Source of the DNA: Candidatus Saccharimonadota bacterium
GTDB lineage: Bacteria > Patescibacteriota > Saccharimonadia > Saccharimonadales > Saccharimonadaceae
Direction of reading: 5' to 3'
DNA: 64,000 nucleotides
NCBI GenBank assembly: GCA_030445265.1
Contig: JAUCSC010000001.1
Span: forward strand, 248,001-312,000
This document shows positions 19,400 through 58,978 of the stretch, one piece after another. Within the stretch, counting starts at the first letter, position 1. Each line of letters begins with the position of its first letter. The notes beneath the pieces were generated by a model. It searched no databases. It saw only the letters and a list, made by a program, of their open reading frames with translations, and had not been told where the DNA came from. Made by a program: the position numbers and the translations under genes.

Positions 19400-19556
19400 T
19401 CAGACGTATCCAGAGTGCAGCGAGAGAACTAGCTCGACGACCTGCCGGCAACCAGCGATAACGCACGGTGCCCCTTCTAGCCCTAGCGGAAAGATAAGAT
19501 ATTCATAGCTCCTTTTTATCTTTTGCTTTATGGGCGGAAAGATATGTGAAAGGAGT
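19400..19556 (+). promoter_or_regulatory. SAM riboswitch-like leader (SAM-I/IV clan) of metK
   Basis: Hallmarks of the S-box core appear in order. They are TATCCAGAG (19408-19416), then a helix, then GCCGGCAACC (19444-19453), GCACGGTGCC (19463-19472), and GGAAAGATAAG closing the core (19488-19498). The 5' TATC can pair with GATA to form P1. Downstream, GCTCCTTTTTATC (19508-19520) can pair either with the core-side AAAGATAA or with the Shine-Dalgarno AAAGGAG (19549-19555). This suggests ligand-controlled translation initiation. metK is a standard SAM-riboswitch target. I cannot decide between SAM-I and SAM-I/IV variants by eye. Confidence 0.8.
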
Positions 19557-54402: not shown

Positions 54403-56559
54403 TTATAGTTGCGCTTTTGTCTCGATGAAGGCGTCGTTGTACGTTTTGACCGTGATGCCGCTGCTCACGACAGCTTGAATCTGCTTATCAAAGTCAGCGA
54501 TATAACTATCGTATGGTCCAGGATTATTGGCAACGCGGTGATAGACCAGCACGAGCCACGTCTTGTCGGCTTGTGCATGAGCAATCCAAGCAGCGACTTG
54601 TTGTGGCGTCGTGGTATCAAGAATATTCTGGACGCGTATATCATACGCATTGAAATTGTCTTTTGAATTATAGCCTTCATCCACGCTTCGGTGTGACTGA
54701 TAGTACTTCTTTACTTCCGTAACGACTCGGGCGTCATAGTCACCATATGGTGAAGCAAAATTGAGGACTGGCTTACCGATTAACTTTTCAAGATATTGTT
54801 TTGAGTGGGATAGCTCATAGGTAAGTGCGGTCGGTGTCGTCGTTGTCAAGAAGGGATGCGTAACAGTGTGAGAGCATATTTCATGACCGCTCTTGGAGAA
54901 TGCGAGAGCGCCGTTAATGACGGCCTGGCTTTGACCTTCTAAGAACTGGGTAGCGTAGCACTGTGTCGATTTGAGACCATATTTGTTGAGTATCGGCAGG
55001 GCGTTGGTAGCATTATCTTCATGGCCATCATCAAAGGTAAGCGTCAAAAGCGGACGACTAAAGCCAGTAGGGCTGTAAGGGGTAAGACTGTAATTGTCCG
55101 TCTGAAGCCAACCATTCTGACTAATGTAGAAGAAGACCGATGAGGAGACTGCTCCGGCAGGGACCGTAAAGGTGTCACTGTACTTCTGCCATACCGTTGT
55201 ACTGTTTGCAGCTGGCTGGGCAATTGGTAAACCAAAATACTGTGTGCTGCCGTCTGCCATGTTAAACATAGCAACAGGATGTGGCGCTACGTTTGTCTTG
55301 TACCAAGCGGTCACTCGGTACTGGGAGCCGACTTTTAGCGTCGTGATAGGCTCAAAGTACCATTTAGCATCCCCGTCTTTATAATTCGTAACCGTTACCT
55401 TGGTGCTCTTCGTACCAGACTGGCCTTCGTTGACATATTCAAATTTCGGTGTGTTTGTACCCCAGTTGCTAGAAGTCCAGCCAGAGGGCAGATTATTGGC
55501 CGAGGTTTCCATTGAAGGGTTGGCGATAGTCGGTCCAGTAGGTGCTGGCAATGCGACGCTCATACTGACATCATCAATACTCAGTGTGCCGACACGGTCA
55601 ATGAGGTGATACACCGATGCTTTGACGGCAGTAGACGGTGCGGTTATGGTTGCACTGTATTGGGCCCAGGTAGACGCGCTCAATGGGGCGTCGGTAAGAT
55701 CTTGGTATGTATATGCACCGGCAGCATCCTGAAAGGCAACGACGACACGGGTTACGACGCTTGCTTTATAAAAATCACGATATAGGTAACTCTTCGTAGG
55801 GGTGACGGTAACTGGTGCGGCATACCATTTGGCATCACCATTAGTAAAGCTCGTCATAGAAACGGTCGCGCTTCGGCTGCCAGTTCGCCCGGTACTTCCA
55901 TACGTAAAGCTTGCGGTATTTGTACCCCATTTATTATTAAACCAGCTAGCGGGCATAACGCCGTTGGCGGTTTCAAATGATCCATTCGCAATGAGGTTAT
56001 CTTGATCTACTGGTGCGGTAACGGTAGCGGAAAGATTGAAGTCATCAGTCTCGAGTGTACTGACGCTACTGACAAGGTGCATAATTGAAATCTTAGCGGC
56101 GTTTGCTGGTGTCGTGAAGGTACGACTAAAGGCGACCCAAGTGCTACTTGCGGGCATCGTATCAACATACGCATAAGTATTCTTACCAGTCGTATCGGTA
56201 TATTGCAGATCTAATTCACTTGCTCCAGTTGCTTTGTACCAACTCGTATAGGTGTAAGAGGTATTCGGTTTTACGGTGACTGCATCGTGCATCCATTTGG
56301 CATCTCCATCGGTTCGGGCAGTCATGGCTACTTTGAGGCCTTTGCCGGTATGACCTGTCGTCGTGTACGCCAATGTCGTCGTATTTGTGCCCCATTTGTT
56401 GGCAGTCCAGTTAAGAGGAGTAGTTCCGCTCGCTGTTTCGACTGATGGGTTAGCGATAAGATTTACTTCAGCGGCGTTCACAAGGAGTGGCGTTAAGATG
56501 TTTGACAATATGCCAAGTGTAAACAGAAATGATAATAGGATTAAGCGGATGCGATTCAT
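54403..56559 (-). CDS. Secreted polysaccharide deacetylase with three binding modules
   Basis: Signal peptide at residues 1-29 (IRLILLSFLFTLGILSNIL...NAA). Three tandem jelly-roll modules of about 145 residues follow, each starting xxIANxSxETAxxxxPxxW and containing a KWGTNT and GDAKW pair (about 33-178, 188-335, 345-490). A NodB domain (about 505-718) has LTLTFDDGHED, the metal histidines SHTVTHP, SPYGDYD and VYHR. It should de-N-acetylate a cell-surface or host glycan outside the cell. It lies near a processive GT2, as in PgaB/PgaC-type systems. Confidence 0.9.
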   Translation of the reverse strand: MNRIRLILLSFLFTLGILSNILTPLLVNAAEVNLIANPSVETASGTTPLNWTANKWGTNTTTLAYTTTGHTGKGLKVAMTARTDGDAKWMHDAVTVKPNTSYTYTSWYKATGASELDLQYTDTTGKNTYAYVDTMPASSTWVAFSRTFTTPANAAKISIMHLVSSVSTLETDDFNLSATVTAPVDQDNLIANGSFETANGVMPASWFNNKWGTNTASFTYGSTGRTGSRSATVSMTSFTNGDAKWYAAPVTVTPTKSYLYRDFYKASVVTRVVVAFQDAAGAYTYQDLTDAPLSASTWAQYSATITAPSTAVKASVYHLIDRVGTLSIDDVSMSVALPAPTGPTIANPSMETSANNLPSGWTSSNWGTNTPKFEYVNEGQSGTKSTKVTVTNYKDGDAKWYFEPITTLKVGSQYRVTAWYKTNVAPHPVAMFNMADGSTQYFGLPIAQPAANSTTVWQKYSDTFTVPAGAVSSSVFFYISQNGWLQTDNYSLTPYSPTGFSRPLLTLTFDDGHEDNATNALPILNKYGLKSTQCYATQFLEGQSQAVINGALAFSKSGHEICSHTVTHPFLTTTTPTALTYELSHSKQYLEKLIGKPVLNFASPYGDYDARVVTEVKKYYQSHRSVDEGYNSKDNFNAYDIRVQNILDTTTPQQVAAWIAHAQADKTWLVLVYHRVANNPGPYDSYIADFDKQIQAVVSSGITVKTYNDAFIETKAQL

Positions 56560-56673
56560 AAAACCTCTTTAATTGACCTCTTTATTCTCGGTTATAGTAC
56601 TATAGAATTAACAATTTGTCAACAATCATATGTAATAGTAGAAGCTTATGGTTATAACTGTTATACAATACTC

Positions 56674-56702
56674 TTTACAAAAAAGCATAAATAGTGTATA
56701 CT
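56674..56702 (+). promoter_or_regulatory. Strong promoter of LPFTG microprotein
   Basis: TTTACA (56674-56679), 17-bp spacer, TATACT (56697-56702). Start expected near 56709. Confidence 0.7.
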
Positions 56703-56708
56703 GCATAT

Positions 56709-56839
56709 GAAATTGCGGAGTATTCGCTATCGTACCAGGGGTGTGAGCCTGGTATCTGTGACGAACCTACAATTCGATATAAATGGAGCCGTGAGGAGTG
56801 GTGGGCGTATTCGCGACTCTCTAAATAAAGGAGACCATT
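56709..56839 (+). promoter_or_regulatory. Structured 131-nt leader of LPFTG gene
   Basis: Contains TACCAGG-GGTGTGAG-CCTGGTA, two TATTCGC copies and GAGT...ACTC pairing, ending in AAAGGAG 6 nt before the ATG. Much longer than the usual near-zero leaders here; may control translation. No known riboswitch recognised. Confidence 0.45.
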
Positions 56840-57010
56840 ATGTACGGAAAAGGAGCAACCCCTAGTGTCGCTGGTGTAGCTGTACTTCCATTTACTGGAG
56901 GAAACGAAGTACTATTGACCGTCGCAGCAAGCCTTATCGCTCTCGGCGTCGTCGTATTCGTAGCTTCTCTGATCATGGGCCGCAAAAGCCGCCAATCAGA
57001 AGCAAACTAA
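56840..57010 (+). CDS. LPFTG sortase-signal microprotein, 56 aa
   Basis: Short protein MYGKGATPSVAGVAV followed by LPFTG, a hydrophobic helix (LLTVAASLIALGVVVFVASLI) and the positive tail GRKSRQSEAN. This is a complete C-terminal cell-wall sorting signal (LPxTG, TM, charged tail). There is no N-terminal signal peptide and only 15 residues before the motif. A sortase gene lies 80 bp downstream. It may be a surface-anchored peptide, a sortase substrate carrier or a pilin-like unit. The strong promoter and structured leader suggest high expression. Confidence 0.8.
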   Translation: MYGKGATPSVAGVAVLPFTGGNEVLLTVAASLIALGVVVFVASLIMGRKSRQSEAN

Positions 57011-57011
57011 T

Positions 57012-57033
57012 CCTACAGTGGTTACATTGTAGG
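57012..57033 (+). terminator. Hairpin after LPFTG gene
   Basis: CCTACA / TGTAGG stem. Confidence 0.45.
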
Positions 57034-57042
57034 TACATCGAT

Positions 57043-57069
57043 GCGCGGCTTTCATTACGGAAGCCGCGC
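57043..57069 (+). terminator. GC-rich hairpin before sortase
   Basis: GCGCGGCTT-TCATTACGG-AAGCCGCGC, 9 pairs; no strong T run. Separates the LPFTG and sortase units. Confidence 0.55.
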
Positions 57070-57077
57070 TCGTCGTT

Positions 57078-57083
57078 TATAAT
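57078..57083 (+). promoter_or_regulatory. -10 box placing TSS on sortase ATG
   Basis: TATAAT with exactly 6 nt before ATG 57090. Confidence 0.6.
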
Positions 57084-57089
57084 GCATAT

Positions 57090-57692
57090 ATGACTATGAA
57101 AAAAGCCCGAATATTACTATTGATCTCAAGCCTCATCTTTTTTATAGGTGGAGCGACTTTTCTCGGACTGTTTGCATTGCCATATCTTCAAGCCCGGCAA
57201 GCCGCTGCTACCATGCCGGCTGTCTCCGTGGCTACACAACAAACTGAACCGATGCAGCGGCCCGATGACTATATCGGCGGTACTCCGCGACATATTACCG
57301 TACCGTCTGTCGGCATTGATCTAGCGGTCCTCGACGGCCACTACAACGAGCAAAATGGTGAGTGGACCTTGGGTTATGACGGCGCGTACTTCGCGACACC
57401 GACCTCACCAATCTCCAATCAACATGGCAACACGTTAATATACGGACATAATCATGACGCAATCTTTGCTAAATTAGCGGGGGTCAAAGCAGGTGACAAA
57501 GCGACCGTAGCCACTGAAAACGGCTATGTCTTTACCTATGTATATAAATCATCGGAAGATGTGAAACCAACAGATGTATGGATACTCAATGATAACGGAT
57601 ATCCTCAGATGACGCTGCAAACTTGCACAGGGTTTCTTGATCAATATCGCAAGATGTACTTTTGGTCGTTTGAATCGTACGCAAAGGCCTAG
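57090..57692 (+). CDS. Sortase
   Basis: Membrane-anchored transpeptidase: one N-terminal helix (about 5-32) and a sortase barrel. Catalytic histidine in LIYGHNHDAIF, cysteine in LQTCTG, and arginine in DQYRKMYFW. These are the three expected residues in order. Cuts between T and G of LPxTG-type signals and joins the protein to a wall or other acceptor. The LPFTG microprotein just upstream is an obvious candidate substrate. The TATAAT box predicts a leaderless mRNA. The stop overlaps the convergent GT2 by 4 bp. Confidence 0.92.
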   Translation: MTMKKARILLLISSLIFFIGGATFLGLFALPYLQARQAAATMPAVSVATQQTEPMQRPDDYIGGTPRHITVPSVGIDLAVLDGHYNEQNGEWTLGYDGAYFATPTSPISNQHGNTLIYGHNHDAIFAKLAGVKAGDKATVATENGYVFTYVYKSSEDVKPTDVWILNDNGYPQMTLQTCTGFLDQYRKMYFWSFESYAKA

Positions 57693-58978
57693 TGAGCCAC
57701 GTCGAGTAGTGCTTGTGCCGACACCTTATAGCGGCGGCCATCTGTTGACCAGCCTTTGACCTCACTCTTAAATTTACCTAATATGACTACTTCGACAAAC
57801 GCGACGACATAGACGGCAATTTCAACATACCGTAAAAAGTAGAAATAGGGCAGGGCACCGATGAGGTTCCAGCGCTTAGCGGCAATCGAAGCGAAGATTG
57901 CTATGGCACCATTGATGATAAGATCGAGGGCGATAAGGATAGGGATGATCCACCAATTGCCGGTCATAACAATAAGCATCGGTATGAGCACGAGAACTTG
58001 AAAGAAAAAGAGTATCGTCTGAAATATTGAGAAGCTAAGGCTAAGATCAATCTTTTGGAGTCGTGAGCCTATCCGGTATTTTGTTACGCCTTGGAAAAAG
58101 CCTCGTTGCCAGCGCAGGTTCTGCTTGATGAAGTCAGAAAGGGTTTGGGGGTCTTGAGTATAGTTGACTGCTTTTGGAATATATAAAATCTTACCGAGTT
58201 TTTTGCGGTGCACCTGAAGCGTGATGTCGAAGTCTTCTGTCAATGTATTAGCTTCAAATTCCAGATCTTTTAGAATGTCTGTTCGGAAGCAGGTGATCGG
58301 TCCAGGAAAGACGGAGATCATGCCGAGCTTTGCCTGTATTCGACGGGTTACTTGTTGCGAGTACGTGTAGGAGAGCGCACGGTACGTACTTATCCAGTTG
58401 CCGCGAAGGCTTTGGACAAATCCAACCGCAACAGCGTACTTAGCCGGGTCAAGATTCTTGCGGTAATGGCGGAAGTAATCACTTGAAAAGATACTGTCAG
58501 CATCTGCGACATGCAGCCAATCATAGCGATCTTCAAGCTTAAAGTGATCAATGGCCTGTTTGACAGCCATAGCTTTTCCGCTGCGCTCGACATTTAGGAC
58601 GTGGTCCTCGCCAAGTAGATTGGTAGCTATCTCTCTCGTCTTATCAGTCGAGCTATCATTCACGACGTAAATATCTCTTTTTTTCTGACCAGCCGCAATG
58701 GCAGATCGGATCGTTTCAGCAATGATAAGCTCTTCGTTGTGAGCTGGCAGAAGGAGTACGAGTTGTTGACGATTTTTGATGGTTGGTACGGTCTTATCAT
58801 TAAATAACGCAAGTTGATCATAGGTAACAGGCTCAAATTGGGGTACGTTAAGGCGTATGAGCTGAGCGCTCGCCAGCATTTCGGCGCGGGATGGTACCGC
58901 TAATGTGCGGCTAAGAATCGGCCGACGACCGGGTATATGCATATCACGCTGAGGGTAGGTAATCTGATGTTCTGTCAT
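57689..58978 (-). CDS. Processive membrane glycosyltransferase (GT2, PgaC/BcsA-like)
   Basis: GT2 synthase: LLPAHNEELIIAETI, YVVNDSSTDKTREIA, VADADSIF (DxD), TLTEDFDITLQ (TED) and QNLRWQRGFFQG (QxxRW), the full set for processive synthases. C-terminal helices (about 320-345, 350-370, 385-405) form the export channel. Likely makes an N-acetylated exopolysaccharide that the nearby secreted deacetylase modifies (inference). TATAGT (minus strand, 58985-58990) predicts a leaderless transcript. Confidence 0.9.
   Translation of the reverse strand: MTEHQITYPQRDMHIPGRRPILSRTLAVPSRAEMLASAQLIRLNVPQFEPVTYDQLALFNDKTVPTIKNRQQLVLLLPAHNEELIIAETIRSAIAAGQKKRDIYVVNDSSTDKTREIATNLLGEDHVLNVERSGKAMAVKQAIDHFKLEDRYDWLHVADADSIFSSDYFRHYRKNLDPAKYAVAVGFVQSLRGNWISTYRALSYTYSQQVTRRIQAKLGMISVFPGPITCFRTDILKDLEFEANTLTEDFDITLQVHRKKLGKILYIPKAVNYTQDPQTLSDFIKQNLRWQRGFFQGVTKYRIGSRLQKIDLSLSFSIFQTILFFFQVLVLIPMLIVMTGNWWIIPILIALDLIINGAIAIFASIAAKRWNLIGALPYFYFLRYVEIAVYVVAFVEVVILGKFKSEVKGWSTDGRRYKVSAQALLDVAH

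What the first reader, a model, noticed from the sequence alone, without database searches (positions are those of the whole stretch)
56674..57692. 56-residue LPFTG protein without signal peptide, beside a sortase
The small gene encodes almost nothing but a sorting signal: 15 residues, LPFTG, a helix and a basic tail. It has a strong promoter, an unusual 131-nt structured leader and an adjacent complete sortase. Known sortase substrates carry a signal peptide and a large ectodomain. Possible roles are a peptide displayed on the surface or transferred to a host, a pseudo-substrate that primes the sortase, or an N-out inserted mini-protein. It is too short for normal gene finding, so it may be overlooked in related genomes.
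Basis: partly seen in the sequence, partly recalled or inferred. Interest (0 to 1): 0.7.

Follow-up and report, generated by a model that had tools for sequence, protein, structure and literature searches.

The report
Tiny sortase substrate in sugar-polymer locus
A 56-residue protein that is little more than a cell-surface anchoring tag is a real gene conserved across Saccharibacteria, nearly always beside its own anchoring enzyme and an active sugar-polymer synthase, which suggests it is a short peptide handle used in attaching or modifying that polymer rather than an ordinary surface protein.

Summary
The ORF is real. It is one of at least 34 collected members (52-65 aa) of a family concentrated in Saccharimonadales, with an ATG (mostly MYG/MSG), a Shine-Dalgarno site, an invariant LPxT, one hydrophobic helix and a basic tail. 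Codon substitutions show protein-level purifying selection (pN/pS 0.02 and 0.08). No member has room for a signal peptide plus ectodomain. In 27 of 29 loci with enough flank the next gene is a sortase with intact His/Cys/Arg.

The mini gene lies in a polysaccharide module: a processive GT2 synthase (PgaC/hyaluronan-synthase-like) and usually a CBM-polysaccharide deacetylase. A sister module, also in this genome, has a full-length LPxTG-like protein in the same slot, a sortase, and a synthase homologue that lost its catalytic motifs. Mini goes with an active synthase in 23 of 23 loci; full-length substrate with a dead one in 14 of 14.

Best model: a dedicated N-out sortase substrate whose ~19-residue peptide is transferred to an amine acceptor as a tether or decoration for the polymer. 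Substrate role likely; acceptor and function inferred. The "structured leader" is not supported; the promoter is real and conserved. New variant of sortase sorting; nothing in the searched literature describes it.

The parts
56674..56702 (+). Promoter TTTACA-17-TATACT with a conserved CA 6 nt after the -35 (element GCATAA/GTCATAA in the spacer)
   Evidence: motif in 19 of 29 mini loci, 0 of 256 control genes; a version of the full motif occurs once in this genome
56709..56839 (+). 5' leader of about 131 nt; no supported structure
   Evidence: z = -0.20; no Rfam hit; similarity to relatives stops just past the promoter
56828..56833 (+). Shine-Dalgarno AAGGAG
   Evidence: GGAG-type site before the start in nearly all relatives
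56840..57010 (+). Mini sortase substrate, 56 aa
56840..56884 (+). N-terminal tail, residues 1-15 (MYGKGATPSVAGVAV); with LPFT gives the predicted 19-residue peptide after cleavage
   Evidence: alignment A3: tails of 13-27 residues, near-zero net charge
56885..56899 (+). LPFTG sorting motif
   Evidence: LPxT invariant in 34 of 34 members
56900..57007 (+). Hydrophobic helix and basic tail (GRKSRQSEAN)
   Evidence: AF2 helix 23-55, pLDDT about 90 in the core; mean 3.2 positive residues in the last 16
57090..57692 (+). Dedicated sortase, 200 aa; N-terminal membrane helix; H120, C179, R187
   Evidence: PF04203 1.6e-21; catalytic residues invariant in 19 relatives; AF2 pLDDT 87.7 and Foldseek hits to class A/C sortases
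57689..58978 (-). Processive GT2 polysaccharide synthase (PgaC/IcaA- and hyaluronan-synthase-like), convergent, 4-nt overlap; DAD, TED, QxxRW intact
54403..56559 (-). Polysaccharide deacetylase with CBM_4_9 repeats and an N-terminal signal-peptide-like stretch, divergent
   Evidence: PF01522 2.7e-24, 3 x PF02018; PDB deacetylases

Best explanation
The 56-aa protein is a dedicated, minimal sortase substrate inside an exopolysaccharide module. Shown here: it is a conserved gene under protein-level selection; it sits in the slot directly before a sortase with intact catalytic residues; its neighbours are an apparently active processive GT2 synthase and usually a polysaccharide deacetylase. Inferred from charge pattern and sorting-signal anatomy: it inserts N-out without a signal peptide, the sortase cleaves LPFT|G outside the membrane and holds the 19-residue peptide MYGKGATPSVAGVAVLPFT as a thioester, then passes it to an amine (cell-wall stem peptide, or an amino sugar exposed by the deacetylase). 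Inferred from the two-module comparison: the peptide's purpose is tied to the polymer, most likely as a covalent tether or decoration linking the glycan and the cell wall. Rough likelihoods: real translated gene 0.97; sortase substrate 0.85; function tied to the polysaccharide 0.65; tether/decoration specifically 0.45.
For: Selection: pN/pS 0.084 and 0.020; synonymous changes dominate in the N-tail as well as the rest. Sortase next gene in 27 of 29 loci with enough flank; in an independent sortase-led scan 17 of 31 loci carry the mini directly upstream. Active-looking synthase in every mini locus where it could be read (window, 15 loci, 7 further distinct loci: 23 of 23; the TED motif was not matched in one, L108) and a deacetylase in 14 of 17. 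The sister module has a 107-445 aa LPxTG-like protein in the same slot, mostly with a signal peptide, and a GT2 homologue (hhalign 99.8%, E 1.5e-30) without the motifs: 10 loci and 4 more, one of them in this genome. Two distinct active synthase lineages go with the mini (window type vs same-strand type). Where no sortase is adjacent (L064, L073, L121, L123) the mini still sits beside a GT2 and in some a deacetylase.
Against: No biochemistry: acceptor, cleavage and tethering are unobserved. The dead synthases may descend from a single split (one clade in the GT tree), so the mini/active and full/dead association may be one ancient event seen many times; the sortase tree suggests more than one but is weakly resolved. 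YidC (PF02096) was not found in this genome, so the insertion route is open. The identity of the polymer is not known. The N-tail is poorly conserved between species apart from M-Y/S-G and the residues next to LPxT.
Confidence: 0.5

Rival explanations
1. Plain surface display: the sortase attaches the ~19-residue peptide to peptidoglycan, where it acts by itself (adhesion or interaction with the host cell); the polysaccharide genes are neighbours only because both are surface functions.
For: Standard sortase chemistry; MraY is present, so lipid II is plausible; Saccharibacteria live attached to other bacteria (own knowledge).
Against: The link to an active synthase holds even where the sortase is not adjacent and holds across two synthase lineages; the exposed peptide is short, small-residue-rich and variable.
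Confidence: 0.17
2. Accessory membrane subunit or regulator of the synthase (in the manner of the small IcaD/PgaD partners) whose abundance is set by sortase cleavage.
For: Small single-helix protein beside an IcaA/PgaC-like synthase with no other small partner identified here; present beside a GT2 without adjacent sortase in L064, L073, L121, L123.
Against: LPxT is invariant in 34 of 34; in the sister module the same slot holds ordinary LPxTG-like surface proteins, which marks it as a substrate slot.
Confidence: 0.15
3. Released peptide signal: the sortase hydrolyses the acyl intermediate and the peptide leaves the cell as a species-specific pheromone.
For: Short peptide, variable N-tail between species.
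Against: No receptor or transporter noticed as a recurrent neighbour; context is polymer synthesis; sortases normally transpeptidate.
Confidence: 0.06
4. Chance ORF or untranslated remnant.
For: Short; below cut-off of anchor-domain models.
Against: Order-wide orthologues, Shine-Dalgarno sites, strong purifying selection, conserved promoter.
Confidence: 0.01

Closest known systems
[quoted passage not shown]
   Same: LPxTG motif, hydrophobic helix, basic tail, dedicated sortase next door
   Different: No signal peptide, no ectodomain, 52-65 aa in all; this member is below the curated cut-off of PF00746
LAXTG motif-containing small protein (NCBIfam NF058583)
   Same: A named family of small proteins with a sortase-type motif; 2 of 34 members match it weakly (best E 0.0039)
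   Different: No match for the window protein; motif, lineage and locus differ; whether it has a signal peptide was not examined
PEP-CTERM/exosortase (EpsH) system
   Same: C-terminal sorting tag processed by a transpeptidase-like enzyme linked to exopolysaccharide genes (PMC1569441)
   Different: Exosortase is a multi-spanning membrane protein of a different family, PEP-CTERM proteins carry signal peptides, hosts have an outer membrane
ica/pga poly-GlcNAc loci (IcaA/PgaC synthase with deacetylase IcaB/PgaB)
   Same: PgaC/IcaA-like GT2 (TIGR03937 1.2e-26) with a polysaccharide deacetylase
   Different: GT score far below the equivalog cut-off (93.6 vs 422.3); a sortase and a sorting-signal peptide take part; polymer unknown
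Pf3 phage coat protein (N-out, Sec-independent insertion; PMC8548208)
   Same: Very short, weakly charged N-tail, one helix, no signal peptide
   Different: No sequence relation (no PHROGs match); not a virion protein; carries LPxTG; YidC not found in this genome

Membership tests
LPXTG-anchored surface proteins | LPxTG motif, hydrophobic segment, positively charged tail | tested here: met
LPXTG-anchored surface proteins | N-terminal signal peptide | tested here: not met
   Only 15 polar/small residues before LPFTG and a 61-codon open frame; N-tails 13-27 aa in 34 members
LPXTG-anchored surface proteins | Extracellular domain | tested here: not met
   N-tail of 15 residues only
LPXTG-anchored surface proteins | Score above curated cut-off of PF00746 | tested here: not met
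   14.4 vs 20 bits; at E up to 0.1, 11 of 34 members match PF00746 and 14 of 34 match TIGR01167
LPXTG-anchored surface proteins | Cleaved and covalently attached by a sortase | not testable with these tools
   needs biochemistry
Sortase (PF04203) for the neighbouring gene | Sortase domain with catalytic His, Cys, Arg | tested here: met
   76.8 bits vs cut-off 26.6; H120, C179, R187 invariant; sortase fold
Named sortase classes C, D, E, F and GN in NCBIfam | Score above class-specific cut-off | tested here: not met
   Only the general TIGR01076 model passes (40.7 vs 39.35); class models are far below their cut-offs
PgaC/IcaA poly-GlcNAc synthase (TIGR03937) for the GT2 | Score above equivalog cut-off | tested here: not met
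   93.6 vs 422.3 bits
Processive GT2 synthases | DxD, TED and QxxRW motifs, C-terminal membrane helices | tested here: met
   ADADS, LTEDF, QNLRW; matches to hyaluronan and cellulose synthases in PDB; helices judged from the sequence only
N-out, Sec-independent membrane proteins (Pf3 type) | Short weakly charged N-tail and positive C-tail | tested here: met
   N-tail mean 0.41 positive, tail mean 3.2 positive; tail exceeds N-tail in 34 of 34
N-out, Sec-independent membrane proteins (Pf3 type) | YidC present in the cell | tested here: inconclusive
   PF02096 not found in this genome; estimated completeness 77.6%, a divergent copy may be missed

The most novel reading that the evidence does not exclude
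A sortase that attaches a polysaccharide rather than a protein: the mini-protein is a ribosomally made peptide linker, and the sortase uses it to join a newly made, partly deacetylated exopolysaccharide to the cell wall (or to amidate amino sugars of the polymer with peptides). In the sister module the synthase is dead and the same slot is filled by an ordinary surface protein.
Probability: 0.3. Interest if true: 0.85.

Novelty: new variant of a known kind. Interest (0 to 1): 0.62.

Why it matters
Sortase substrates are defined in textbooks and search models by a signal peptide, a surface domain and a C-terminal tag. A conserved family that keeps only the tag, paired with its own sortase and an active polysaccharide synthase, shows that the tag plus a short peptide can be the whole cargo. 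If the peptide joins a glycan to the wall it would be a new use of sortase chemistry and a handle on the poorly known cell surface of Saccharibacteria, which live on other bacteria. The two-module contrast inside one genome (active synthase with mini, dead synthase with full-length protein) makes it directly testable.

Tried and rejected
Structured leader or riboswitch: folding no better than shuffles and no Rfam match, variable leader length in relatives. Start-site error hiding a signal peptide: only 61 open codons; the longer frames in some relatives (L061, L076, L080, L091) are upstream read-through before a MYG/MSG-type start with its own Shine-Dalgarno site (L091 judged from the sequence). 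Phage coat protein: no PHROGs match. LPxTG pattern counting in the genome was uninformative: 29 hits against 27 in the reversed control. A Fisher test of the mini/active-synthase link was computed but is not relied on, since loci are related and some recur under two locus ids; I counted distinct loci by hand. Multiple origins of the dead-synthase module: suggested by the sortase tree, not by the GT tree; not claimed. Literature searches for Saccharibacteria/Patescibacteria LPXTG or small signal-less sortase substrates found nothing relevant; only open-licence papers were searched.

Full report
What is there. The window lies in a 645,641-base single-contig genome of a Saccharimonadales-type bacterium: the relatives found by name are nearly all Candidatus Saccharibacteria. 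At 56840-57010(+) a 56-aa frame starts 6 nt after AAGGAG and consists of 15 residues, LPFTG, a hydrophobic helix and a basic tail. A sortase of 200 aa follows 79 nt later (PF04203 76.8 bits). Its catalytic H120, C179 and R187 are invariant in 19 relatives; its AlphaFold model (pLDDT 87.7) matches class A and C sortases in the PDB.

Is it real. A first search of 61 genomes gave short frames with the same layout beside sortases. A profile of 12 members over 247 genomes of the order found about 45 genomes with clear short-frame hits, well separated from weak hits to sorting signals of long proteins. 34 members were aligned: 52-65 aa, LPxT invariant, residue 2 Tyr (23) or Ser (9), N-tails of 13-27 residues with almost no charge, and a tail more positive than the N-tail in 34 of 34. 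Nearly all have a GGAG-type site before the start. In two close pairs synonymous change dominates (pN/pS 0.084 and 0.020), in the N-tail as in the rest. Outside the order the family is nearly absent: in a 380-genome sample of the phylum 8 genomes match, 3 of them outside the order, and only two of those are short frames. So the frame is a translated gene under protein-level selection.

The leader folds no better than shuffled sequence (z -0.20), has no Rfam match and is not conserved beyond the promoter region. The promoter is conserved: TTTACA, a CA dinucleotide 6 nt later and a TAnnnT -10 box occur before 19 of 29 minis and before none of 256 control genes of the same contigs; a version of the full motif occurs once in this genome.

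The neighbourhood. Divergent from the mini is a secreted-type polysaccharide deacetylase with CBM_4_9 repeats; convergent with the sortase is a GT2 synthase related to PgaC/IcaA and hyaluronan synthases. This set recurs. Of 29 mini loci with enough flank, 27 have the sortase as next gene. In a separate scan led by the sortase only, 17 of 31 loci carry the mini directly upstream, 16 of 16 testable ones have the GT2, and 14 of 17 the deacetylase; L105 has mini, sortase, synthase and deacetylase as four consecutive genes on one strand. Some minis lack an adjacent sortase (L064, L073, L121, L123) but still lie beside a GT2, and in some a deacetylase, so the mini follows the polymer genes at least as closely as the sortase.

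The sister module. Ten sortase loci without a mini have, in the same slot 7-34 nt before the sortase, a protein of 107-445 aa with an LPxTG-like signal, mostly with an N-terminal signal peptide. Their next gene is a homologue of the synthase (profile-profile probability 99.8%, E 1.5e-30) that has lost DxD, TED and QxxRW, and they have no deacetylase within the stretch held. A search with the dead synthases over the order added further loci and the same split. Counting distinct loci by hand: mini with intact synthase 23 of 23 (window, 15; the TED motif was not matched in L108), full-length substrate with dead synthase 14 of 14 (10, 4). This genome holds one of each: the second lies at contig positions of about 54707-56929, with a 189-aa protein that has a signal-peptide-like start and a C-terminal LANTS-helix-RQQR, a sortase and a dead synthase. 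The mini also goes with two distinct active synthase lineages. The caution is phylogeny: dead synthases form one clade in the GT tree, while the sortase tree spreads the full-length type over several places with weak support. The association may be one old event rather than many.

How it most likely works. Shown: gene, selection, substrate slot, catalytic residues, active-synthase context. Inferred: N-out insertion without a signal peptide, as for the Pf3 coat protein (PMC8548208), although YidC was not found in this genome (completeness estimate 77.6%); cleavage between T and G; transfer of a 19-residue peptide to an amine. MraY is present, so lipid II or wall stem peptides are possible acceptors; amino sugars freed by the deacetylase are the other candidate. 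The polymer link suggests that the peptide tethers or decorates the polysaccharide. This is analogous in spirit to the PEP-CTERM/exosortase link with exopolysaccharide (PMC1569441), but with a true sortase and no signal peptide.

Membership and novelty. The mini meets the sorting-signal features of LPXTG proteins and fails the signal peptide, ectodomain and Pfam cut-off tests; it works like a sortase substrate but is not a standard one. The sortase is a member of PF04203 and passes none of the NCBIfam class models that it matched. The GT2 is not a PgaC equivalog. Literature searches found no description, within an open-licence library only. I rate it a new variant of a known kind, interest 0.62.

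Noticed in passing
genome G000 contig C1 about 54707-56929 (locus L005, outside the window): Sister module in the same genome: 189-aa protein with signal-peptide-like start and LANTS-type sorting signal, sortase, and a GT2 homologue without catalytic motifs
   Followed up: partly
L093, L094, L096, L097, L098, L109, L110, L111, L113, L114: A family of catalytically dead GT2-like membrane proteins directly after sortases, most without a Pfam match; role unknown, perhaps a scaffold for sortase or substrate
   Followed up: partly
56644-56721 and upstream of about 20 relatives: Conserved promoter with gCATAAg upstream and GTCATAA/GCATAA in the spacer; looks like a binding site for a regulator specific to this module
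   Followed up: partly
L121 and L123: Mini homologues in another class or outside the order, beside a GT2 (and a CBM-containing secreted protein in L123) but with no sortase adjacent
   Followed up: no
19403-19500: SAM riboswitch (RF00162, 47 bits)
   Followed up: no
genome G000: No YidC (PF02096) match although the genome is one contig; absence, divergence or missing sequence not resolved
   Followed up: no
L099 and L106: Sortases of a third context: neither a mini nor a full-length LPxTG protein in the slot; long branches in the sortase tree
   Followed up: no
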